Shown: piece after piece, positions 4,462 through 40,546 of the stretch
Layout of the letters: each line of letters begins with the position of its first letter
Numbering within the stretch: position 1 is the first letter of the stretch
From: Desulfobacteraceae bacterium 4572_35.2
GTDB lineage: Bacteria > Desulfobacterota > Desulfuromonadia > Desulfuromonadales > Desulfuromonadaceae
Length of the DNA: 40,546 nucleotides
Direction: 5' to 3'
NCBI GenBank assembly: GCA_002084665.1
Contig: NBLY01000009.1
Location: 1-40,546 of the forward strand
The notes under the pieces: generated by a model
The model's input: only the letters and a program-made list of their open reading frames with translations
What the model was told of the DNA's origin: nothing
Database searches by the model: none
Position numbers and translations under genes: made by a program

Positions 4462-4949
4462 TGATGTTTTACTCTCTTAAAAGGACGAGGCCAACGGGAG
4501 ATACGTAACGTTTTAAGGCTTGGCACCATCCGTAACACCACGGCATAAGAGACAGCGCCAAGAAGTAAACCGAAAACTACACTGCCTAAGCACATGGGAA
4601 CCAGCAGATTGTAGCCGAGTTCAGCGATGGACTCAGATGTAACGTGATGGGGAAAATGGATGTGCTCCATACCGAGAAAAAAGCGCCCCATTTCGTATTC
4701 AGCGGCATAAATTAATGGTGCTGTGATCGGATTGCTAATCCACACACCGACAGTGGCGGCAATTTTGTTCTGCCCTAAAAGCATAGCGACAAAAAATGCA
4801 ATCAACATTTGGAAACCAAGTGTAGGTGTCATGCCGATAAAAACCCCCAAAGCGAATCCTTTGGCAATTTCATCGGGCTGGGCGCGTAAACGCAACAAGC
4901 GCAACAACAGCAATTTAGATTGTCTAATAAGTCCCCATCGCCGCCACAT
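4458..4949 (-). CDS. DUF2062 domain-containing membrane protein
   Basis: 163 aa; IAKGFALGVFIGMTPTLGFQM and GVWISNPITAPLIY are typical of DUF2062. Confidence 0.85.
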   Translation of the reverse strand: MWRRWGLIRQSKLLLLRLLRLRAQPDEIAKGFALGVFIGMTPTLGFQMLIAFFVAMLLGQNKIAATVGVWISNPITAPLIYAAEYEMGRFFLGMEHIHFPHHVTSESIAELGYNLLVPMCLGSVVFGLLLGAVSYAVVLRMVPSLKTLRISRWPRPFKRVKHQ

Positions 4950-4955
4950 TGTGTT

Positions 4956-5999
4956 CTACCGCTTTGACCATGTGTCTGACTGCAACGGGCCGTCGACAGA
5001 ATCAAGAGGCCAGTTGGCCCGAGCATTTAAATCAAGCGGCGATGATAATCCACGACTCAAGTATTCATCACCGGCAACGGCTAGCATCGCTGCATTATCG
5101 GCACATAACAGTGGCGATGGAAAAAAGACATCGATATTTTTATCACAACCAAACTGTTGGAAGCGTTGGCGCAAGCCGCTATTACACGCGACACCACCGG
5201 CAACGGCAATGCGCGTTAGCCCTTGTTCGTGCGCAGCTTTAAATGTTTTGCGACTTAAGACATCGACAACAGCCTCTTGAAAACTAGCGGCAAGATGTTG
5301 CAGCGTTTGCTCCTCAAGGGGATGCTCAAGTTTTTTGATTTGATTCAGCACCGACGTTTTGATACCACTGAAACTAAAATCGAAACCTGGCCGATGTAAC
5401 ATGGGCCGTGGGAAATCAAAATATTTCGGGTCGCCCTGTTGCGCCAAGCGGTCAATCAAGGCACCGCCTGGGTAGGTTAACCCTGACATCTTAGCGATTT
5501 TATCAAAGGCCTCACCTGCCGCATCATCCAAAGTTTGACCAATGATCTGATACTGACCAATCCCCTCAACACGATACAGGTGGGTGTGGCCGCCAGAAAC
5601 CGCAAGGGCTAGATAGGGAAATTCAATTTGATGCTCTAAAAACGGTGCCAGAATGTGGCCTTCGATATGGTGGACACCAACCAGCGGAATCCCCAGTGCG
5701 TAAGCCATCGCCTTGGCATTGGACATACCGACAAGCAGCGCGCCAATGAGCCCGGGGCCAGCAGTGACAGCAATCCCTTCAATCTCGGCTAGTTCAACGC
5801 CAGCTTGCTGCAACGCCTGTTCGATAACAACAGGACAGGCCTCAAGGTGTTTACGGGCCGCGAGTTCAGGCACCACACCACCGTAACAGGCGTGGAGATC
5901 AACCTGAGAGGCAATAATATTGCTTAAAACCTCACGGCCATCGCGAACGACAGCCGCTGAGGTTTCATCACAAGAGGATTCAATAGTAAGTATCAGCAT
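4956..5999 (-). CDS. tsaD: tRNA N6-adenosine threonylcarbamoyltransferase
   Basis: 347 aa; ILTIESSCDETSAAVV, GVHHIEGHILAPFLE, LAVSGGHTHL, VAGGVACNSGLR. Confidence 0.97.
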   Translation of the reverse strand: MLILTIESSCDETSAAVVRDGREVLSNIIASQVDLHACYGGVVPELAARKHLEACPVVIEQALQQAGVELAEIEGIAVTAGPGLIGALLVGMSNAKAMAYALGIPLVGVHHIEGHILAPFLEHQIEFPYLALAVSGGHTHLYRVEGIGQYQIIGQTLDDAAGEAFDKIAKMSGLTYPGGALIDRLAQQGDPKYFDFPRPMLHRPGFDFSFSGIKTSVLNQIKKLEHPLEEQTLQHLAASFQEAVVDVLSRKTFKAAHEQGLTRIAVAGGVACNSGLRQRFQQFGCDKNIDVFFPSPLLCADNAAMLAVAGDEYLSRGLSSPLDLNARANWPLDSVDGPLQSDTWSKR

Positions 6000-27635: not shown

Positions 27636-28133
27636 TTATTCTTTTTTTTCATCATTCTGTGGTTGCGCTGGCGAATCAAGGGGCAACTCAATCACATCCT
27701 GCACAGGTTCCACTGTAGTCTCCACCACTTCCTCTTCGTAAATAGCATCTGCCACCGCTCCAGCCGTTGCTGGCGTTGACACAGTAGTCGGTGCTGATTC
27801 ACGGCTAGCTTTAGGCTCATCAACGACATCCTGTTTCACATCATCTTTACCCTTGTTTTTCTTGTCTTTCTTCTTTTTCTTCGCGCTACTGTCCTGATCA
27901 GAAACAGGCTGTAGCTTACCAAGTTGTCGTTTCAACTGAAAAATCTTAATAGTGCTGCAAAATGAGGCCGCGATCATCCCAAGGACAAAAGCTGACAAAA
28001 CATATAAAAACAAATATGTTTCAGGTGTCGAATATTCTAGAAAATTAAGACTGACTTTGGTCTCGTTACTGGAACAAAAAACAAAAACAAACGTTAATCC
28101 AACTAATGCAAATATTATTTTGACAAACTTCAT
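27636..28133 (-). CDS. LapA domain-containing inner membrane protein
   Basis: FALVGLTFVFVFCSSNETKVSLNFLEYSTPETYLFLYVLSAFVLGMIAA followed by a Lys/Glu-rich tail. Confidence 0.7.
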   Translation of the reverse strand: MKFVKIIFALVGLTFVFVFCSSNETKVSLNFLEYSTPETYLFLYVLSAFVLGMIAASFCSTIKIFQLKRQLGKLQPVSDQDSSAKKKKKDKKNKGKDDVKQDVVDEPKASRESAPTTVSTPATAGAVADAIYEEEVVETTVEPVQDVIELPLDSPAQPQNDEKKE

Positions 28134-28204
28134 GCAACTCTCCTCTAAAATTTCATTTTCATGTCAACACATCAAATAACAACAGACAGACGTTAGACGA
28201 TTTA

Positions 28205-28717
28205 TCATTCAACGTCAATATTGATAATCTCGCCACCAATCCCTTCACCAATAGTGAGCATGCCGACAGAGTGCCAAGGGGCACGGCGGCGATCTGTTGC
28301 ACTACCTGGATTCATAACTAAAATTGAATTAACCGTATGACAGACTGGCAAATGGCTGTGACCATAGACCAAACAATCTAACTCGACAGACTGACAGTGA
28401 CTCAGTAATCGCTCCTCAAGGCCCTCAGCATCACCCCAACCATGAATCAAACCAATTCGATAGCCTGCAAACTCAACCACTCGCTGTTCAGGAGCAATCA
28501 AGTCTATTGAGTCCATATTACCCCGCACGCAATAAAACGGCAGTTCACCGAACAGTAGCGGCACATCGGGGTGAACCAAATCTCCTGCATGTAATATGGC
28601 ATCAACATCTGAGAAATGATGTTCCAAAAGATGCTGAACAAAGTCTACACCTTCTGAAATTGAATGGAAGTGGGTATCAGAAAGAACTCCAACTTTAACT
28701 TGCTTAGCCATACTCAA
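28205..28717 (-). CDS. YfcE/MJ0936 family metallophosphoesterase
   Basis: VGVLSDTHFHS, AILHAGDLVH, VRGNMDSIDL, LIHGWGD, VYGHSHLPV, MNPGSATDRR. Confidence 0.93.
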   Translation of the reverse strand: MSMAKQVKVGVLSDTHFHSISEGVDFVQHLLEHHFSDVDAILHAGDLVHPDVPLLFGELPFYCVRGNMDSIDLIAPEQRVVEFAGYRIGLIHGWGDAEGLEERLLSHCQSVELDCLVYGHSHLPVCHTVNSILVMNPGSATDRRRAPWHSVGMLTIGEGIGGEIINIDVE

Positions 28718-28763
28718 CCACCCTCACAATTAACAAAATAAAACCTGTTCAGCATAGTAGCAT

Positions 28764-28798
28764 AAAAAAAGGCCCCCGAATCAACTTCAGAGGCCTTA
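28764..28798 (-). terminator. Rho-independent terminator downstream of glnA
   Basis: Minus strand AAGGCCTCTGAAGTTGATTCGGGGGCCTTTTTTT. Confidence 0.8.
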
Positions 28799-28823
28799 AA
28801 ATCACAATCTACTAAACTACAAA

Positions 28824-30233
28824 CTAGATGTCATAGTAAAGGTTGAACTCTTCCGGTACTGGACGCATACGAACAGGATTAACTTCCGCTTCTGTTTTGT
28901 ACTCGATCCACTTCTCAATAACATCGAGTGTAAAGACATCACCTTTTAACAAGAAGTCATGATCCGCCTGTAGGCATTCCAATGCATCCTCAAGTGATTT
29001 TGCAACACATGGGATATCTTTAAGCTCTTCAGGAGACAAGCCATAGATATCTTTATCAAGTGGCTGGCCCGGATCGATTTTATTTTCGATACCATCAAGA
29101 CCCGCCATCAATAGTGCAGCAAATGCCAAATAACCGTTACAAGATGGATCAGGAGTACGGTACTCAACACGCTTCGCAGCCGCAGCGTTTGTTACGGGGA
29201 TACGCAGTGATGCTGAACGGTTACGGTTTGAATATGCAAGATTTACTGGAGCTTCATAACCAGGAACCAAACGCTTGTAGGAGTTAGTACTAGGGTTAGT
29301 AAAAGCACAAAGCGCCTTTGCGTGCTTCATGATTCCACCGATGTAGTACATAGCCATCTTTGAAAGACCACCATAACCATCACCAGCGAACAGGTTCTCA
29401 CCATCTTTCCAGATAGATGAATGGATGTGCATACCAGAACCGTTGTCACCATAAATTGGCTTAGGCATAAAAGTAACGGTCTTGCCATTACGCACAGCAA
29501 CGTTCTTAATGATGTACTTAAACCACTGTACGGTATCGCCCATGCTTACAAGGGAGTCAAAACGCATATCGATTTCACACTGGCCGCCTGATGCAACTTC
29601 GTGGTGAGATGCCTCAATACGCATTCCAACACTTTGTAGCACTTCAACCATCTCATTACGCAGGTCAATACTAGAATCGGTTGGAGCAACAGGAAAGTAA
29701 CCCTCTTTATGGCGTGGCTTGTAACCTAAGTTAGGATACTCATCACGGCCTGTGTTCCAGCGACCCTCGATTGAATCAACCGCATAAAAAGACTGGTTAC
29801 ATGTCGATTCGAAACGAACATCATCAAAGATAAAAAACTCTGGCTCAGGGCCAAAAAATGCGGTATCGCCAATACCTGTTGATTTCAGATACGCTTCAGC
29901 CTTAGAAGCGATAAAACGTGGGTCACGAGAGTAACCTTCACGAGTAATTGGATCAATGATGTTACAAATCAGACTAAGGGTCGTTGCCTTGGGAAATGGA
30001 TCGATTTTAGCAGTATCAGGAACAGGAATCAGCAACATGTCGCTGTTATGAATCGGCTGCCATCCACGAATTGAAGAACCATCAAAGCCGATCCCTTCTT
30101 CAAAAGTATCCTCATCAAACTCTGAGACTGGTGTGGTAAAATGTTGCCAAATTCCGATAAAGTCGAGGAATTTGTAATCTACCATCTTCACATTATTATC
30201 TTTTGCAAACTGAACAACTTCTGCTGCATTCAT
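28824..30233 (-). CDS. glnA: Type I glutamate-ammonia ligase
   Basis: 469 aa; [63 protein letters not shown]. Confidence 0.97.
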
Positions 30234-30320
30234 TATTTAGATCTCCTTGAATGATTTATACGTGTGCCACATGTGCCACGCATGAGGTATTAATTCTAAC
30301 TATTAAAATTTCAACTACTT

Positions 30321-30740
<420 letters not shown>

Positions 30741-30773
30741 TCATGCAAAATTACATATCAGTAAGGAAGGTAA

Positions 30774-30789
30774 AGCAATAACCTTGCCA
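30774..30789 (-). promoter_or_regulatory. Candidate sigma-54 promoter upstream of glnB-glnA
   Basis: Minus strand TGGCAAGGTTATTGCT; matches TGGCACG-N4-TTGC at GG/GC and spacing; about 115 bp upstream of glnB. Confidence 0.5.
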
Positions 30790-31015
30790 CACATACATAA
30801 AAAGCGGATCGACGATTTTTCATCCAACAAATCAATATGTTACAAATACAAACAAACCACTAAAAGTATATTTACAAACAAAGCCAACAAAAAATGCTCA
30901 ACTTTTAATCAAAAAAGAAAAAAGATATGCACACTTTTTACTCAGCAGTGGAATGATGACGATTAACTCTTGGGAGCTTCTAAATCTATTTTACACCCTT
31001 ATTTGGTATATATTT

Positions 31016-31181
31016 ACTGACACATCAATAAGTTAGCTTGGTTCGACCCCGTGTGTCGAATTTACGTTAGAGGTTTGATTCAGTTTTTTAGACAAAACAC
31101 TGACACATCAATAAGTTAGCTTGGTTCGACCCCGTGTGTCGAATTTACGTTAGAGGTTTGATTCAGTTTTTTAGACAAAAC
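31016..31181. repeat. Perfect tandem duplication of an 83-bp unit (31016-31098, 31099-31181)
   Basis: Unit ACTGACACATCAATAAGTTAGCTTGGTTCGACCCCGTGTGTCGAATTTACGTTAGAGGTTTGATTCAGTTTTTTAGACAAAAC occurs twice without mismatch. Confidence 0.97.
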
Positions 31182-31210
31182 CTTTTATTAAGACTGTTAC
31201 TTGACTTTTA
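31150..31210 (+). repeat. Left ~60-bp inverted repeat flanking the jet operon
   Basis: TTAGAGGTTTGATTCAGTTTTTTAGACAAAACCTTTTATTAAGACTGTTACTTGACTTTTA; the reverse complement recurs at 38123-38182 with only a few differences. Confidence 0.95.
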
Positions 31211-31294
31211 TACTGAAGTTTCCCTCGTTTATCCTTCAACTACTGATCATCTAGCAGAATATGGTTCATACGACTCGACAAAAAAGCCGGGGAT

Positions 31295-31320
31295 GTATTG
31301 TGGCGATAGCGCCACAATAC
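31295..31320. promoter_or_regulatory. Perfect 11-bp inverted repeat upstream of jetA (possible operator or leader hairpin)
   Basis: GTATTGTGGCG-atag-CGCCACAATAC; not followed by a T run. Confidence 0.5.
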
Positions 31321-31496
31321 AAGAAGAAATTCACAAATATTTTACTAATTGCGATGCAAGGATATTTAACTTATATTTATATTATTGGGGAGGATTACTT
31401 GATGTGCAGCGCAACCAGACGAACAACACCTCGCTGCGTTTACGGACAAGGCTACGATGAATCTCACCACCCTTCACTAAAGAAAGCAGATGAACT

Positions 31497-32912
31497 GTGA
31501 TTTTCGGCAGACTGCACGACAACATCTTCTCGCCACTTGCGGGAAAGAACCGCCATATTTACGAAAAAGTTATTTTAGCGATCATGCCGGTTATCCTCGA
31601 TAGCGACGATGCCGACATGATCTTTCCGCCCAAGCCCCTTGTTCTCTCAACAATCTATCAATTACTCGATGACATTGAACGCCTTGAATGGTGCGCCGAA
31701 GACGAGGAAGAGATACAAGAAAAAGGTTCCACCCTCTCCATCTGCGCGAACCAGATTTACCGTCGGCTCAAGAACACGGGATGGCTCGAGGAGGAAGACG
31801 ATGGATTCAATAAGCTCGTTGTTATGCCGCCAGACGTTGCAATGTTAGTCCTCGCCTTACAAAACATCAAAAAAGCCGAAAAAAAGAACTACGGCGGTAC
31901 GGTCATTGGAATCCTGAACAATATCGAAAAGGCGTGCAGTGACCCGATAGGCCGTGGCTATGGTTTGGTAACGGCCACTGAAGAAACGCAGGCATTCATT
32001 GCCCATATTAGCCAAATCGTCCACGGCTTACGCAATTTACAGAAGCAGATACTTGACACACGGAACCCAAAAGAGATTTTGGAAGTGTTTTATGTAGATT
32101 TTGTCGACAAGATCCTTATTGCTGATTACAAGACCCTCCAAGCTGGCAACAATCCGTTTCGTTATCGCTCAAAGATCATTGATGCCCTGCAACAGCTGAA
32201 CTACGATGATGAGACAAAGCGGCAATTATGCACGGTGTATGAAGAACAACTACAAATTACTCACGCTGAAGCTGTTCAGAAGGTTGATCACAATATCAGC
32301 TACATCATCAGTGCCTTTAGTTCCATCGACAGACGGCTCCGCCGAGTAGACAGGTTTCGCGCTCAACTTGAAAACAGAGTAGCGGAAACAGTGCGCTATG
32401 TTGATAAAACACTGCCTGGCATACGACATCGCATTGCGGGGGTACTTTCAGGCGTAGGCTCGAAGATAGAAGCCGATGCCGATTGGTATTCCGACTCTGC
32501 CGCCCCCTGCCAGTTACAATTCAATCGCATGATCTCTCAGTCAAGCGCATGGACCCCACCGAAAAAACGCGAACCTGTTGCCGTTGAAGTTTTCGCAGAG
32601 AAAAAGGTCAGTGAGGCAGCACGACAGGCCAACGTACAGATGCGTGAGTTTCAGAAGAGACGTAAAATTTCACCTGTGGCCATTGCTGACTACATTGAGC
32701 GTCACCTTGGCAACAACGACAGTATCAAAGCCGATCAGTTTAGCATTCGCAGTGTTGAGGACTATGTGGCCTTTTGCCATATCGTCAACTTGCGCTACCT
32801 CAAGGGGGGCGCTCACATTGCAGCACGGTACACCATCACCCGCCACGATCAACTGATTGAAAACGACATGGTAAAAACGCAAGATTTTACCGTAACGCGA
32901 AAGAAGCGATAA
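31497..32912 (+). CDS. jetA: Wadjet anti-plasmid system protein JetA (MukF/kleisin-like)
   Basis: 471 aa, GTG start; MIFGRLHDNIFSPLAGKNRHIYEKVILAIMP; first gene of a four-gene array with MukE-, MukB- and DUF2220-like genes. Confidence 0.85.
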   Translation: MIFGRLHDNIFSPLAGKNRHIYEKVILAIMPVILDSDDADMIFPPKPLVLSTIYQLLDDIERLEWCAEDEEEIQEKGSTLSICANQIYRRLKNTGWLEEEDDGFNKLVVMPPDVAMLVLALQNIKKAEKKNYGGTVIGILNNIEKACSDPIGRGYGLVTATEETQAFIAHISQIVHGLRNLQKQILDTRNPKEILEVFYVDFVDKILIADYKTLQAGNNPFRYRSKIIDALQQLNYDDETKRQLCTVYEEQLQITHAEAVQKVDHNISYIISAFSSIDRRLRRVDRFRAQLENRVAETVRYVDKTLPGIRHRIAGVLSGVGSKIEADADWYSDSAAPCQLQFNRMISQSSAWTPPKKREPVAVEVFAEKKVSEAARQANVQMREFQKRRKISPVAIADYIERHLGNNDSIKADQFSIRSVEDYVAFCHIVNLRYLKGGAHIAARYTITRHDQLIENDMVKTQDFTVTRKKR

Positions 32913-32914
32913 TC

Positions 32915-33472
32915 ATGGAAAAATCCGATAAAGATACCCTACGCGTAGCGGCCACTATTTTACTGGAAAAACAGTTCCTCTATCTGTCCAACCAAAGTGA
33001 GCGCAAGCACTATCTCACTATTGCGGGTGAAACCAGTTACTTTGAAAATCTCTTTGAGCAATTAAGCCGCAGCGTATTCATAGATCGTAACTTAGGCTAC
33101 GTCGCCCTACTGCCAAACCCCGGTGCAAAAAGTATCAGCCTGAAGCAAGACGAAACGCTGATGCTGTTATGTTTGCGCCTTATCTATGAAGAGGGGATCG
33201 AGAACTTTGCCGCGACCGAAGGGGCCGTGACGGTAACCAGTGACAAAGTAATTGATCGCTACACCACGGAAACGCGGCTTGAACAACCAAATTTAACACG
33301 CTTCAGGGAGATTATGGTGCTGTTGAAACGCCACGGCATCGCCTCTGCAAAAAAAGAGAGCGAAGGCAAGAACATGGTGATCACTATTCGCCCTGCGATA
33401 CGCCACGTTGTTAACGATGATTATATCGTACAGCTGGAAGAGTTGGTCGGAGAAGAGAGTGATGCAGAATAA
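32915..33472 (+). CDS. jetB: Wadjet system protein JetB (DUF4194/MukE-like)
   Basis: 185 aa, 2-bp gap from jetA; AATILLEKQFLYLSNQSERKHYLTIAGETSYFENLFEQLSRSVFIDRNLGYVALLP. Confidence 0.85.
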   Translation: MEKSDKDTLRVAATILLEKQFLYLSNQSERKHYLTIAGETSYFENLFEQLSRSVFIDRNLGYVALLPNPGAKSISLKQDETLMLLCLRLIYEEGIENFAATEGAVTVTSDKVIDRYTTETRLEQPNLTRFREIMVLLKRHGIASAKKESEGKNMVITIRPAIRHVVNDDYIVQLEELVGEESDAE

Positions 33473-33540
33473 GAATCTGATTAGAGGCCGCGATTCCATC
33501 TCTTTCTGCTTCAGCGAACCGAAACATAAAAGGACCTAAA

Positions 33541-36500
33541 TTGAAATTCTTATCGAAAATAATATTGGTCAACTGGTACTTGCTTGACGGTGTAGAGCTT
33601 GAGATCAAAGGTAACACCGCCATCGTAGGCCCGAACGGATCGGGTAAGTCCTCCATCCTCGATGCCGTGCAAACAGTCCTTGCTGGCCGCGACCGCAATA
33701 AACTGAATCTGAACGCTGGTGCCAGCGGCAAAGGTAAACGGAGCGTGCACGAGTATTGCTTAGGTGTTATCTCTAATGCCGCAGGGCAAAACGTCTACTT
33801 TCGTAAAACGGCACATACTCACATTGCCCTTGTCTTCCACGATGACGTAACTAATACCCATACCACCGTCGGCATTTCAATGACCGCCTCGACATCCCTC
33901 CATGAAGAAAACGTCGAGGGACGGTTTGTGGTACCAGGAATGAACGCCAGCCTTAGTGACTTCGTGCGCCATACCAGCAATGACCGCCGCAGTGCTATTC
34001 CGTGGGTCGAAGTTAAGTCCACCATTGATCGGCTCCACCCACAGGTGATCTACTATCCTGGTAGTAATGCCTTCCGCTTTGTCAGTGAGTTATTGACTCA
34101 GCTCAGTGAAGATCCAGGCTGTCCAATGATCGACACAGATCAATTTTTAAGAAACCTGCAAAATGCCATCGCTTTTGTTCCGATCGGTGACCCAACCATG
34201 TTCGTGCGCGACTTCATCCTTCAGAACAATGATCTCTCCATTGATGATCTACGTGGAGCCATGAAGAATTATGAGGAGATGAACGCAAAGCATCAACAGG
34301 TCAGTGAGCGAATTGACGATTTAACCCAGATCGAGACGTTATGCAAAAAGGTAAAAACTCATCAGAGAAATATTGCGTACTTCAGGCTGATAAGCCTATG
34401 GAGCAACAAAGAGCACCACATTGAACTCAGTGAGCCGATCAACACTGAGATTGAAGATATCGAACAGCACCAAATTGACTGTGCTGATGCAATCAAAGAG
34501 TTCGACGACAAACGCGAACAGTTTCGCAACCAACTGAACGAAGCCAAAAACGAATTAGCTAACTCCACTGTCAAGGCACGCATCACCGCCCTTCAGCAAA
34601 AAAAGGACGTTAGCCGAAGGACAGAGGAGTTGTCTCAAAAGGAACTCGATACAACGCGTAACGAGATCTCTGAACTATTGCGCTGTAACAGTCATTTCGC
34701 TTTATTGCCACCTGAGCTTGTATCCAGTCATCAAGCACTTACAGATCACGTCAACAAGGAAGACGCTCTATTGGATCAACTGTGGCCAACTCAGCCGCAA
34801 CAAGTGGATCACGCCATTGATAGTTTTGTTGGCCTTGAACAGCAGACGCGCAATCTTCGTAGTGACAAACAAGCTCGCTACATCACCAATAAAGATCGGT
34901 TAGAAACAGAGATAGGCGGTGTGCTTAGTCATCTAAAGCAATTACGCGATGGCAAGTCCCCTCTTTCACACGACACCCTAGCAATGGTCGCTATCCTCAA
35001 AAAAAATAACATTGAGTCCCGCCCCTTTTGTGATTTGTGCGATGTAACGGATGAGACTTGGCGCTTGACCATTGAAGGTATTTTAAAGGGCAACCGTGAG
35101 GCGTTGATTGTTGACAGCAAGGATGCTCACGAAGCAGTACGGATATACAGACAAAACAAGCGAGATTGCCCAAAAGCCAAGGTGATTGATACCACGAAGA
35201 CGAAACGCTGGATTAACAAGGTATCGGCAAACACGTTGGCAACGATTATGAGTACAGAAGATGAAGACGTGCGTGCGTTCATCAATCGACAACTTGGTAA
35301 TATTGAGATGGTCGAAACGGAAAAGGAGCTATTGGCAACCAATCGTGGGGCCACGGCAGATGGGATATTTTACAATGGCGGCGTTACATCCTCCATCGAA
35401 CGTCCCCGTCCCTACCCTATCCTTGGCCGTGAGAGTCAGGCTCTGCTCTTAGAGCAACTTGAAAAAGAACTGGAACAACTGCAACAAGAGTTTAACGATA
35501 CGGATCTGGTGAGTAAAAACCTTAACGCAGTTGAGGAGGTGATCCGTTCATTCGTTAATTTTTGTGACCGCCGCCGCCAGAGCGTTGAAAAAACAAAAAA
35601 AGAGCGTGAAGAAGCTCACTTAAAAACATCGCAGCTAGATCGTGAGATAGCAGAACTCGAACAAAATCAAGACACCACGCTGCAATCGCGCATAGGGCAG
35701 CTTGAAGGTGTCGTTGCACAATTAAAAGCCGACACCGACGCACAGCAAAAGAAGCAAATAGAATTGGCTCAATTGCTCGGCAGGAAAACAGGCGATTACG
35801 CCGCACTGCAAACAAAGATAACCACCTATGAGGCACAAGAAAAAGAGCTCACTGGGCAACCAATGTGGGACAGCGAAGGTTGGGATTTTGCAGATGTGAC
35901 CGATCGTTTTCTAAAACTCCAAGAACAGTTCAATGCCGATCACCAACTGGTGATATCTCATTGTTTAAAAAAACAGCAGACCCTTGCGGCACAGCTGAAC
36001 AACGAAGAGAGTGCGGTTTATCAGCAAACATGGAAGCACCAGTCGCAATATGCCACAATTGGGGGCGTATCGAGCTTTGCTAAAAACGACAAGCCCGATT
36101 TTGATGAACTTTATGCGCGTATTGCCAGCGACAAACAAAAGCTCATTGATACCAGCCTTGCCGAATATGCTGCGAAATCTCAACAGGCACTACACGACGC
36201 TGAATTCACCTTCAGGTCACAGTTTATCTTTAAGATCAAGGAAAGCATCGACAAAGTAAAAAGTCAGCTTAGTGAGCTTAATCGTACCCTGAAGAAAATT
36301 ACATTCCACGGTGAACGATACACCTTCAAATGGTCGTATAACCCTGAGTATAAAAATATCGTCAAACTGTTTGATGCCATTGACGAGAATCCGAACTTCA
36401 GCTTGTCGGGGCTGTTTGACCCAAGTAATGACCCCACCTCCCCCCACTATGACGCAATACAGGAGATCAACGGGGCGTTGAAGGATTCACAGCAAAGCTC

Positions 36501-36990
36501 GCGATTGGAAGATTATCGCTCCTATTTTGTTTTCGACATCGAAATGCACTCCCAGGATGGCGAGTTGAAATCCAATATGCGCAACCGTATTGCCAAAGGT
36601 TCAGGTGGCGAAGGCCAAAGTCCTTATTACGTTGCCATTGGTGCGGCCCTGGCATCAACGTACCGGCTACGTAACACCTCTGAAGGGGTGAAAGGTGGAA
36701 TACACCTGATTATGTTTGATGAAGCGTTCTCAAAGCTCGATGTTGAGAACTGCGGCAACTGTTTAAACTTCCTACAGGACATCAACCTTCAGGTGTTGCT
36801 TGGTGCTCCAGATGAGAAGCACACCATCCTTTCAGCCTCGATGGATACCATCATCAATATCTACCGTGAAGAACAGGCGATTGATATTAGCATTGAGTAT
36901 CCGACTAAGGCCGCGCACGCATTACTGCAGCAAGACAATCCGACGATTAATAAGCCCGTTCCTGATTCAAACGCTACAATAGGGGCATAA
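33541..36990 (+). CDS. jetC: Wadjet system SMC-like ATPase JetC
   Basis: 1149 aa; Walker A AIVGPNGSGKSSILDAVQTVLAG, coiled coils, signature KGSGGEGQSPYYVAIGAALASTYRL, Walker B GGIHLIMFDEAFSKLD. Confidence 0.93.
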   Translation: MKFLSKIILVNWYLLDGVELEIKGNTAIVGPNGSGKSSILDAVQTVLAGRDRNKLNLNAGASGKGKRSVHEYCLGVISNAAGQNVYFRKTAHTHIALVFHDDVTNTHTTVGISMTASTSLHEENVEGRFVVPGMNASLSDFVRHTSNDRRSAIPWVEVKSTIDRLHPQVIYYPGSNAFRFVSELLTQLSEDPGCPMIDTDQFLRNLQNAIAFVPIGDPTMFVRDFILQNNDLSIDDLRGAMKNYEEMNAKHQQVSERIDDLTQIETLCKKVKTHQRNIAYFRLISLWSNKEHHIELSEPINTEIEDIEQHQIDCADAIKEFDDKREQFRNQLNEAKNELANSTVKARITALQQKKDVSRRTEELSQKELDTTRNEISELLRCNSHFALLPPELVSSHQALTDHVNKEDALLDQLWPTQPQQVDHAIDSFVGLEQQTRNLRSDKQARYITNKDRLETEIGGVLSHLKQLRDGKSPLSHDTLAMVAILKKNNIESRPFCDLCDVTDETWRLTIEGILKGNREALIVDSKDAHEAVRIYRQNKRDCPKAKVIDTTKTKRWINKVSANTLATIMSTEDEDVRAFINRQLGNIEMVETEKELLATNRGATADGIFYNGGVTSSIERPRPYPILGRESQALLLEQLEKELEQLQQEFNDTDLVSKNLNAVEEVIRSFVNFCDRRRQSVEKTKKEREEAHLKTSQLDREIAELEQNQDTTLQSRIGQLEGVVAQLKADTDAQQKKQIELAQLLGRKTGDYAALQTKITTYEAQEKELTGQPMWDSEGWDFADVTDRFLKLQEQFNADHQLVISHCLKKQQTLAAQLNNEESAVYQQTWKHQSQYATIGGVSSFAKNDKPDFDELYARIASDKQKLIDTSLAEYAAKSQQALHDAEFTFRSQFIFKIKESIDKVKSQLSELNRTLKKITFHGERYTFKWSYNPEYKNIVKLFDAIDENPNFSLSGLFDPSNDPTSPHYDAIQEINGALKDSQQSSRLEDYRSYFVFDIEMHSQDGELKSNMRNRIAKGSGGEGQSPYYVAIGAALASTYRLRNTSEGVKGGIHLIMFDEAFSKLDVENCGNCLNFLQDINLQVLLGAPDEKHTILSASMDTIINIYREEQAIDISIEYPTKAAHALLQQDNPTINKPVPDSNATIGA

Positions 36991-36991
36991 G

Positions 36992-38125
36992 ATGGGAAAT
37001 ACTGCCGCTTCAGCTTTACTTCTGCGCCTATTTGAATCGTGGCAAAAGAGTGCCAATAAAGATCAAACCTTTTCGCGGCCGATTACGAGAAAAATGGCGA
37101 AAGAGTATTTTTCTACTACAACATTTCATGGCAAGGAACAACTCCATGCACGGCTTAGAACAGCTGAGGCCAACGGCTGCATAAGTCTCACTTGGGCTAA
37201 ACGCGCCCCCAATAAGGTTTTGGAAAGAATAACCCTTAAAGATCCCACAAAGCTGGCAACATTTTTAGATGTGCCATTAGCGTCTGAGCAAGCAGCTGAT
37301 GCACGAGAGCAGATTGAAAAACATGTACGGACTGAATTCGAATGGATTGCTGTGATAAAAGAGGATCTAGTTCTTGCATGGCACCATGGAAAATCACTAC
37401 ACGGATTAGGTGTTGCGGATGTGGCAAAGGCAATCAGTGTATTGAATGCTCTCGATGCCGTCAGTCAAGGATGTCATCGCGGCCACGACCTGCGATCCTT
37501 CAGTGTGACCTACCTTGGTAACTCAAAAACCATGGAATCAATAAAGGGTATTTTTAGAACGCTTTGGCAACATCACCATGGGGGCGACCTCGAAGCTCAA
37601 GAGTTATACGAGTCACTTGGCTTGGTAAAGTTTGCCCAACCGGTCTTCTTACAAGCTCAATGTACCGTTAAGCTCAACAACACTCAGATCGATTGCTGCA
37701 ACGTCAAGCCGTATATTGGTTTGGCACCACAATCCATCAACGACATTGAGTTTGACGCGCCCCCGCGTTATGTGCTGACCATCGAGAATCTTGCTTCATT
37801 TAATCGCCACTGTGATGAGATAACAGATGGTGGGTTGATCCTGTATAGCAATGGCTTCCCCTCCCCCGATTTTGGTAACCTGATCCGCTTACTGCACCAC
37901 AAGTTTGATGCGAACGTCCCCTTTCTCCATTGGGGCGATGTTGACCTGGGTGGACTGCGTATTTTTTGTCATATTCAGAGTTTTTTACTCGGCAGCGATG
38001 CAGCACGAACATTGCTCCCCCACCTAATGAATAAAGAACTCATCGTAGCACATGGCCAGCCACAACTTAAATTGCGCCGTTCGCAGTTTGATACGGTAGT
38101 TGAAAAATGTCCATCAAGCGTTTAA
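36992..38125 (+). CDS. jetD: Wadjet system nuclease JetD (DUF2220, TOPRIM-like), possibly C-terminally shortened
   Basis: 377 aa; RYVLTIENLASFNRHC (TOPRIM Glu), PFLHWGDVDLGGLRIFCHIQ (DxD). The stop codon lies in the right inverted repeat. Confidence 0.85.
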   Translation: MGNTAASALLLRLFESWQKSANKDQTFSRPITRKMAKEYFSTTTFHGKEQLHARLRTAEANGCISLTWAKRAPNKVLERITLKDPTKLATFLDVPLASEQAADAREQIEKHVRTEFEWIAVIKEDLVLAWHHGKSLHGLGVADVAKAISVLNALDAVSQGCHRGHDLRSFSVTYLGNSKTMESIKGIFRTLWQHHHGGDLEAQELYESLGLVKFAQPVFLQAQCTVKLNNTQIDCCNVKPYIGLAPQSINDIEFDAPPRYVLTIENLASFNRHCDEITDGGLILYSNGFPSPDFGNLIRLLHHKFDANVPFLHWGDVDLGGLRIFCHIQSFLLGSDAARTLLPHLMNKELIVAHGQPQLKLRRSQFDTVVEKCPSSV

Positions 38126-38182
38126 AAGTCAAGTAACAGCCTTAACAAAGGTTTTGTTTAAAAAACTGAATCAAACCTCTAA
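38123..38182 (-). repeat. Right ~60-bp inverted repeat flanking the jet operon
   Basis: Reverse complement TTAGAGGTTTGATTCAGTTTTTTAAACAAAACCTTTGTTAAGGCTGTTACTTGACTTTTA, near-identical to 31150-31210. Confidence 0.95.
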
Positions 38183-38228
38183 TCATTACTTGGCGGACAA
38201 TGCCCGCCCTTCAATCAAACAAATAATA

Positions 38229-38263
38229 AGCCCTGTAACTCATTTGAGTTGCAGGGCTTTTTG
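38229..38263. terminator. Bidirectional-looking terminator between the jet element and ssrA
   Basis: AGCCCTGTAACTC-attt-GAGTTGCAGGGCT followed by TTTT on the + strand. Confidence 0.75.
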
Positions 38264-38265
38264 TT

Positions 38266-38617
38266 TGGTGGAGGCGGCGGGAATCGAACCCGCGTCCGAA
38301 AATCTTTCACGTAAGGCGTCTACATATATAGTCTGTGATTTAAGTTTAACTCAACGTGGCCCCCACAGACAGGCTCACACACCAAGCGATTCTATTTAAG
38401 TCTCATTGTTGAACCATAGACGTGAACAACAACCAGCCTACTAAATTGACGTCACTAGAAACCCGTAGGCACTGTTACTAGCGACGTAGCAGACTATGCT
38501 GCTAGTGCGTACGAAACGTCAGTATCGGCGTTTTTATATAATGGGCTTTTTTACGGAGCCTGCCCACTCCGACATGCAACCTTAGCTTCCAATCCCCGTC
38601 GAAACCTTGGCGCCCCC
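38266..38617 (-). ncRNA. ssrA: Transfer-messenger RNA (tmRNA)
   Basis: 5' GGGGGCGCCAAGGTTTCGACGGGGATTGGAAGCTAAGG and 3' GTTCGATTCCCGCCGCCTCCACCA; tag reading frame ADTDVSYALAA*. Confidence 0.96.
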
Positions 38618-38695
38618 GATATCTAAATTCAGGCTTAAGTTTAACGGTTTTACCTATCATACCATAAGACAACGATCATTGATAATTCTGTTATT

Positions 38696-39148
38696 CTAAC
38701 GATTCTCTTTTAGTATTTTAGCCATTTCACGTGTGGCTTGTTTTTGCTTGAGGCTCTCGCGTTTATCGTGCATTTTTTTACCGCGCCCTACCCCTATCTC
38801 AATTTTAACTAGACTATTTTTAAAATAGATTTTCGTTGGTACTAGGGATAACCCTCTTTCATCAACTTTACGCGCCAGCTTTTCGATCTCTAGCTTGTGT
38901 AACAACAACTTACGCATGCGAGTAGGTTCATGATTTCCGCTATTACCCTGCTCGTATGGACTGATATTCATATTATTGAGGAACAACTCACCTTTTATAA
39001 TACGGCAAAATGATTCCTTAATGGTGACGTTACCAAGGCGCAATGACTTCACTTCGGTGCCGAGCAGCATGATACCTGCTTCATAGACATCGTCGATAAA
39101 GTATTCATGATACGCTTTTTTATTGGTGGCGATTATTTTAATGCCCAT
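38696..39148 (-). CDS. smpB: SsrA-binding protein SmpB
   Basis: IIATNKKAYHEYFIDDVYEAGIMLLGTEVKSLRLGNVTIKESFCRI; adjacent to ssrA. Confidence 0.97.
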   Translation of the reverse strand: MGIKIIATNKKAYHEYFIDDVYEAGIMLLGTEVKSLRLGNVTIKESFCRIIKGELFLNNMNISPYEQGNSGNHEPTRMRKLLLHKLEIEKLARKVDERGLSLVPTKIYFKNSLVKIEIGVGRGKKMHDKRESLKQKQATREMAKILKENR

Positions 39149-39190
39149 AGTGAACCGTATTTTCTCTATTTTGCGTAATTACTGCAACGA

Positions 39191-39715
39191 TTACTGATCA
39201 GCAGTATCAATAATTTCTACAATTCTTGCCAATGAATTTTGCACCACAGCTTGGCGGCCAAAACGTAATACCCCCATAGTACCGACCATAAACGCGCAAC
39301 CAATTAACAATGATAACAGTGCCGCAGGAATACCAACAGCAATAAGATTGGCGATAAAATAACCGACTGCTAGGCCAAGTGCAAGCATGATAAATGAAAT
39401 GACGTATAAAAATGATTGCGAATCGACAATTCCAGCGCTGGTTTCAATTTCGACACGCACGGTATCGCCGACACGGGCGTAAGGGATATTGTCGGCAAAG
39501 ATACGACGTTTGCCTTCACTTCCACCGCCATCACCGCCATCATTTCTGATGCAGCAACCACCTGATGCACCACAACCGGAGCAGCCATCACCCTCTTCGC
39601 GTAGTACAATGGCAATCCGTTTCTCGCGCAATTCGCTGACAACACCAACCTCTTCGAGGGTGGTTTGATACTCAAATAATTGCTTAACTGATGGTATTTG
39701 ATTGCCGCTTAACAT
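39191..39715 (-). CDS. SoxR-reducing system protein RseC family
   Basis: 174 aa; Cys-rich GDGCSGCGASGGCC followed by two TM segments, RseC/MucC-like architecture. Confidence 0.85.
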   Translation of the reverse strand: MLSGNQIPSVKQLFEYQTTLEEVGVVSELREKRIAIVLREEGDGCSGCGASGGCCIRNDGGDGGGSEGKRRIFADNIPYARVGDTVRVEIETSAGIVDSQSFLYVISFIMLALGLAVGYFIANLIAVGIPAALLSLLIGCAFMVGTMGVLRFGRQAVVQNSLARIVEIIDTADQ

Positions 39716-39744
39716 GACTCCCCCATTTTTTATGTTTCAGAGCT

Positions 39745-39909
39745 AGCAGTCTGTCGAGCTTGACAAGCCGTAGCGAGAAAAAGCTGGCTTGAGACCAGAT
39801 TTTCGACCATTTGAGAGCGAATAGTGAACCTATTTGTCGAAAATGGACGGTAATATGGGCCAAGTTCAGCTGATTCGTAGTAGGTTCGTGTCAAGTCCGA
39901 CAGCCTGCT
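39745..39909. repeat. MITE-like palindromic repeat, copy B
   Basis: 21-bp terminal inverted repeats AGCAGTCTGTCGAGCTTGACA / AGCAGGCTGTCGGACTTGACA (18/21), internal stem ATTTTCGAC...GTCGAAAAT; shares interior sequence with copy A. Confidence 0.65.
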
Positions 39910-40546
39910 AACTAGCAATATAGCGCGACACGCCATCAACAACAAGCTGTCGCACCTCGTCACTGCGTTGTGCTTGACATAAAAATGGGTAGATGTAGTT
40001 AAGCTCAGGTAATGACTCGGGCTGTAACACCTGAAACGATGCCGGCGCTCCGACAGCCAGTTGCCCCTCTAACGTTTGAGCACCATAGAGTGCTTGAGCG
40101 CCACCACGAGTACACATATATAATAACTGTTGAGGATCGAGATCACCGTTGAACCAATTGAGGGCAAAAGCCATCTCGTGCCAGAGTGATAGTGAATCAT
40201 TGCTGGCCAGGCTATCGGTACCAAGAGCCAAAGGAACCCCAGCCTGAAGATAGTGCGCGGCTGGAGCCACACCAACGTTTAACTTGGCGTTAGAACGTGG
40301 ACACAACACCATGCTACAGCCTGCTGCGCCGACCTGTTTAACTTCATCAGCATTGAGATGAACGCCATGAACCAACACATTGCTGTCAGTCAAGCCTCCC
40401 ACCTGCTGTAACAGCTGTAATGGCCGCACATTGCGGGACTCGGGGAGAAATTGTTGCCAACCGACAAAAGGATACATCTGCTCGGCAATGGAGCCACGAC
40501 TGTCGCAGGTAAAGGCCACCTCATCAGCGGATTCGGCAATATGGAT
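39908..40546 (-). CDS. Amidohydrolase family protein (Atz/Trz, deaminase-like), cut by the right window edge
   Basis: NVLVHGVHLNADEV, CPRSNAKLNVG, VPLALGTDSLASNDSLSLWHEMAF; frame runs to the window end. Confidence 0.82.
   Translation of the reverse strand: MHIAESADEVAFTCDSRGSIAEQMYPFVGWQQFLPESRNVRPLQLLQQVGGLTDSNVLVHGVHLNADEVKQVGAAGCSMVLCPRSNAKLNVGVAPAAHYLQAGVPLALGTDSLASNDSLSLWHEMAFALNWFNGDLDPQQLLYMCTRGGAQALYGAQTLEGQLAVGAPASFQVLQPESLPELNYIYPFLCQAQRSDEVRQLVVDGVSRYIAS

What the first reader, a model, noticed from the sequence alone, without database searches (positions are those of the whole stretch)
31150..38182. Wadjet (JetABCD) operon bracketed by ~60-bp inverted repeats: a possible stand-alone mobile defence cassette
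The left repeat (31150-31210) and the reverse complement of the right repeat (38123-38182) differ at only a few positions. They tightly enclose a 7.0-kb segment that contains only jetA-D. No transposase, integrase or recombinase gene is visible. This resembles a non-autonomous (MITE-like) transposon or passenger cassette mobilised in trans. Alternatively the repeats could have a function linked to the SMC-nuclease, for example as a marker or boundary. Wadjet systems are known to occur in defence islands; I do not know of a described class flanked by such long terminal inverted repeats.
Basis: partly seen in the sequence, partly recalled or inferred. Interest (0 to 1): 0.78.

Follow-up and report, generated by a model that had tools for sequence, protein, structure and literature searches.

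The report
Damaged Wadjet operon between inverted repeats
A bacterial anti-plasmid (Wadjet) operon does sit between two 64-base inverted repeats, but the right repeat cuts off the end of the DNA-cutting subunit at a spot where the chromosome has been rearranged, so this looks like a damaged leftover rather than a working mobile defence cassette.

Summary
A 64-bp unit lies inverted at 31150-31213 and 38120-38182 (92% identical; E about 1e-19 in the genome) and encloses a type I jetABCD operon and no other recognisable gene. Two facts change its reading. First, the right arm is where jetD breaks: the protein has 377 aa against 398-415 in six full-length relatives and lacks their C-terminal LEQE motif, whose glutamates match proposed active-site residues. 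Second, the site is a synteny breakpoint: congeners have CPBP/exosortase-ParB-TPR genes upstream of glnB and variable DNA downstream of ssrA; none checked has glnB next to ssrA. The repeat was not found again in the own assembly, in the class and phylum samples (one partial 33-nt match), or in phages and plasmids. Twelve other Wadjet loci lack flanking inverted repeats. There is no target-site duplication above chance and no transposase was found. I read it as a scar or transposon-end relic around a probably nuclease-dead Wadjet. Mobility in trans is not excluded.

The parts
31016..31098 (+). first copy of an exact 83-bp tandem duplication; contains AGCTTGGTTCGACCCCG, a motif found in the 5' flank of a RAYT-like (Y1) transposase gene in genus mate G002, plus the outer 32 bp of the repeat arm
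31099..31181 (+). second, identical copy of the 83-bp unit; overlaps the left arm
31150..31213 (+). left inverted-repeat arm (64 bp)
31402..31500 (+). possible 32-aa leader ORF with a GGAGG motif upstream; its TGA stop overlaps the GTG start of jetA
   Evidence: read by eye from the sequence; not otherwise tested
31497..32912 (+). jetA, type I, full length (471 aa)
   Evidence: PF18982 E=1.9e-87, PADLOC JetA1 E=1.9e-145
32915..33472 (+). jetB (185 aa)
   Evidence: DUF4194; PADLOC JetB1 E=1.8e-53
33541..36990 (+). jetC (1149 aa), SMC/MukB-like, P-loop and Walker B matches present
   Evidence: PADLOC JetC1 1055 bits; PF13555, PF13558
36992..38125 (+). jetD, truncated at its C terminus (377 aa); ends inside the right arm; LEQE motif missing
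38120..38182 (-). right inverted-repeat arm; supplies the premature stop of jetD
30946..38265 (.). segment with no counterpart next to glnB or ssrA in relatives; synteny breakpoint

Best explanation
The segment is a horizontally acquired type I Wadjet operon that has been damaged. Shown: a 64-bp unit lies inverted on both sides, the right copy begins where jetD homology ends, and the whole sits at a synteny breakpoint between glnB and ssrA. Inferred: the arms are leftover ends of a transposable element, or an inverted duplication formed during a rearrangement, and the event at the right arm removed the last ~25-35 codons of jetD together with whatever followed. JetABC may still be made and move on DNA, but JetD lacks the conserved C-terminal glutamates and probably cannot cleave, so the locus probably no longer restricts plasmids and is not a working self-contained cassette.
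For: JetD coding similarity reaches 38119 at most in five of six pairwise alignments and the arm begins at 38120; all six full-length relatives carry the LEQE motif, the window protein does not. The motif corresponds to MksG E349/E351, proposed alternative nucleophiles (PMC10123090). No remnant of the JetD end was found in the window. The order TPR-ParB-CPBP-glnB-glnA is kept in nine of eleven relatives with enough flank, including all seven informative congeners, but is broken here; similarity to G002 stops at 30945. Every relative's ssrA 3' flank differs from the window's. In the complete genomes G007 and G009, glnB and ssrA lie about 171 and 206 kb apart in the orientation expected if one inversion made the window's junction. 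An exact 83-bp tandem duplication with a RAYT-associated motif overlaps the left arm. No further copy of the arm, and only a chance-level direct repeat at the tips.
Against: Both arms share the same outer tip (TTAGAGG) with unrelated sequence beyond, as intact transposon ends would. jetABC remain open, so decay is not advanced. G008, a third complete genome, has glnB and ssrA in another relative orientation, so a single inversion does not explain all congeners. JetD keeps the upstream Toprim glutamate and DxD residues, so some activity cannot be ruled out. One alignment (L089) runs on past the stop into the arm, though without LEQE. The assembly is about 80% complete, so other copies of the arm could be missing.
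Confidence: 0.6

Rival explanations
1. A non-autonomous transposon with ~60-bp terminal inverted repeats carries Wadjet as passenger and is moved by a transposase encoded elsewhere; the loss of the end of jetD is an internal deletion inside the element.
For: Symmetric outward-facing tips and a tight enclosure of jet genes only. Wadjet is known as cargo of Tn7-like transposons, 34 cases by JetD (PMC8649781).
Against: No second copy in the own assembly or in class and phylum samples beyond one partial match; only a 4-bp direct repeat (TTAC) that 24% of random pairs also show; no transposase gene recognised among the neighbours scanned; neither flank has a counterpart in relatives, so no empty site can be read.
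Confidence: 0.22
2. [quoted passage not shown]
For: jetA, jetB and jetC are uninterrupted while jetD is truncated. G179 and G171 of the same class have jetABC without a detectable jetD next to it. The MksBEF precedent is stated in PMC10586767.
Against: No close relatives exist to measure selection on jetABC; a recent truncation would look the same. Whether jetD lies elsewhere in G179 and G171 was not tested.
Confidence: 0.1
3. The repeats are a functional boundary or marker for the SMC-nuclease.
For: Only their position around the operon.
Against: Twelve other Wadjet loci show no flanking inverted repeat beyond short chance-level matches, and none carries the arm; the right arm replaces part of jetD.
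Confidence: 0.02
4. Assembly chimera: the glnB-Wadjet-ssrA junction or the tandem copy was created by the assembler.
For: Fragmented assembly (129 contigs, 80% complete); a gene adjacency seen in no relative; exact 83-bp tandem copy.
Against: The arms differ at five of 64 columns, unlike an artificial fold-back; GC content of the operon (0.47) is close to that of the flanks (0.44-0.46), which is only weak evidence.
Confidence: 0.06

Closest known systems
Type I Wadjet (JetABCD)
   Same: Gene order and families of all four subunits; closest JetA found is 42% identical (G179)
   Different: jetD lacks its C-terminal end with the LEQE motif; flanking inverted repeats, not seen in the 12 other loci tested
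Wadjet carried by Tn7-like transposons (PMC8649781)
   Same: Defence genes enclosed by inverted repeats
   Different: No Tns genes recognised near the window copy; one 64-bp arm per side instead of arrays of ~20-bp sites
Miniature inverted-repeat elements (MITE-like)
   Same: Terminal inverted repeats without a transposase
   Different: 7 kb with four genes, single locus, no demonstrable target duplication
MksBEF, JetABC without JetD (PMC10586767)
   Same: SMC core intact, nuclease apparently lost
   Different: Here jetD is still present as a truncated gene; chromosomal role untested

Membership tests
Type I Wadjet | jetA, jetB, jetC and jetD in one operon | tested here: met
Type I Wadjet | complete JetD with conserved C-terminal LEQE motif | tested here: not met
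   filed as a damaged member, not a complete one
Type I Wadjet | restricts circular plasmids | not testable with these tools
   needs experiment
Non-autonomous TIR transposon (MITE-like) | terminal inverted repeats | tested here: met
Non-autonomous TIR transposon (MITE-like) | target-site duplication | tested here: not met
   only a 4-bp TTAC with slack; 24% of random pairs give as much
Non-autonomous TIR transposon (MITE-like) | other copies, or an autonomous partner with the same ends | tested here: not met
   assembly incomplete; one partial 33-nt match in G229
Non-autonomous TIR transposon (MITE-like) | empty sites ending at the tips | tested here: inconclusive
   no relative keeps the flanks
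Tn7-like transposon | tnsB-type transposase and multiple transposase-binding sites at each end | tested here: not met
   no such gene among the window ORFs scanned with Pfam (not all ORFs scanned); one arm per side
Integrative element in ssrA | integrase and duplicated ssrA 3' end as att site | tested here: not met
   no direct repeat of the ssrA 3' end reported in 28000-40546; no integrase among the neighbouring genes scanned

The most novel reading that the evidence does not exclude
A transposon class with ~60-bp ends that carries Wadjet as its only cargo and is moved in trans, here caught after an internal deletion that disabled the nuclease; or, alternatively, a JetABC complex kept as a condensin after that event.
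Probability: 0.2. Interest if true: 0.6.

Novelty: new member of a known kind. Interest (0 to 1): 0.3.

Why it matters
It shows how a defence operon that looks complete by gene count can be damaged: all four jet models match strongly, yet the nuclease has lost its conserved end at a repeat. Automated defence surveys would count it as an intact Wadjet. If the arms proved to be ends of a mobile element, it would be a new carrier for an anti-plasmid system.

Tried and rejected
Conserved ssrA-glnB spacer: rejected, the adjacency is absent in the relatives checked. ssrA attachment-site island: no duplicated ssrA end and no integrase found. Repeat as a Wadjet feature: rejected by 12 other loci. The end of JetD in another frame or elsewhere in the window: not found. 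Phage, plasmid and viral-contig searches for the arm or its sub-patterns: nothing. JetA in phages and in viral contigs: nothing. JetA in genome contigs gave one weak, unhelpful match. The partial arm match in G229 (88% over 33 nt) lies about 600 bp from IS3-like ORFs but has no second copy nearby. ParB of the relatives' glnB neighbourhood was not found in the own assembly, so the other side of the rearrangement could not be read. A sequence search of JetD against solved structures found only MksG at a non-significant E=1.

Full report
Observation. The inverted repeat is real and much beyond chance: arms 31150-31213 and 38120-38182, 92% identical over 64 columns, E=1.2e-19 in the 1.9-Mb assembly. 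Only three places in the assembly carry the unit, the third being the outer 32 bp (31067-31098), which belong to an exact 83-bp tandem duplication (31016-31181). Between the arms lie jetA, jetB, jetC and jetD of a type I Wadjet.

The right arm is a break in jetD. Aligned with relatives from the same class, JetD similarity reaches 38119 at most in five of six pairwise alignments (the sixth, L089, runs on past the stop into the arm but without the motif); the arm begins at 38120 and supplies the stop codon. The protein has 377 residues; six full-length relatives have 398-415 (a further one, L091, appears itself broken at 338). The missing part holds a LEQE motif present in all six. In the related nuclease MksG the conserved glutamates E349 and E351 correspond to the residues proposed as alternative nucleophiles in JetD, besides metal-binding E236 and D279 (PMC10123090). 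That LEQE is the same motif is my reading of spacing and conservation, not an alignment with MksG. The window protein keeps the upstream Toprim glutamate and the DxD residues, so loss of cleavage is likely but not shown.

The site is a breakpoint. The order TPR-ParB-CPBP/exosortase-glnB-glnA is seen in nine of eleven relatives with enough flank, including all seven informative congeners; the two of genus g2 differ. The closest one at glnA, G002 (glutamine synthetase 99% identical over the matched part), keeps sequence similarity upstream of glnB up to window position 30945 and then diverges. The 3' flank of ssrA is different in every relative with one to compare and never matches the window. 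In complete genomes G007 and G009, glnB (+) and ssrA (-) are about 171 and 206 kb apart, so one inversion would create the window's adjacency; G008 has another orientation. The inversion is an inference.

Search for mobility. The arm was not found again in 276 other genomes of the class, apart from a 33-nt partial match at 88% in G229, nor in a sample of genomes of the phylum (394 others), nor in plasmid and phage records; sub-patterns were absent from IMG/VR contigs. No direct repeat at the tips exceeds what random pairs give. In twelve other Wadjet loci (nine from the class, three plasmid-borne; some lack jetD or are interrupted) there is no comparable inverted repeat. The jet genes have GC 0.47 against 0.445 for the left core and GC3 0.505 against 0.415, and JetA occurs in only 9 other genomes of 276 in the class, at 33-42% identity, which together suggest an acquired accessory operon.

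The tandem unit. Its motif AGCTTGGTYCGACCCCG also occurs twice in G002, once about 100 bp upstream of a Y1 (IS200-like, RAYT-type) transposase gene and once upstream of a degraded copy, and in near form in G005. It is therefore probably a REP-like repeat, a further sign of local repeat activity at the left edge. By the DNA fold test the unit is not more structured than shuffles.

Verdict. Observation confirmed; the mobile-cassette interpretation is possible but unsupported. The simplest account is a damaged, probably nuclease-dead Wadjet bounded by repeat relics at a rearranged locus. The main limits are the incomplete assembly, the lack of any close relative of this operon, and the absence of a readable empty site.

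Noticed in passing
L092 (G179), L095 (G171): JetABC operons without a detectable jetD next to jetC; jetD elsewhere in these genomes was not searched.
   Followed up: partly
L110:13124-14274; L111:10963-14445; L109:13939-14733: Plasmid-borne Wadjets that look interrupted or incomplete: an IS3-family transposase gene between two jetC parts in Vibrio nigripulchritudo, a TniB/TnsA-type element following jetB in Synechocystis sp. B12 with no jetC or jetD annotated in the stretch, and no jetD listed after jetC in Salipiger (the gene table may be incomplete).
   Followed up: no
window 31295-31320: Perfect 11-bp-stem palindrome GTATTGTGGCG-ATAG-CGCCACAATAC between the left arm and jetA; a possible operator or RNA hairpin (RNA fold of the region z=-2.2).
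   Followed up: partly
window 31402-31500: Possible 32-aa leader ORF with a GGAGG motif, its stop overlapping the jetA start.
   Followed up: no
L024 (G002:C161) 174-1094 and 4810-5160: One intact and one degraded copy of a RAYT-type Y1 transposase gene, both preceded by the motif ACGGGGTCGGACCAAGCTAACT.
   Followed up: partly
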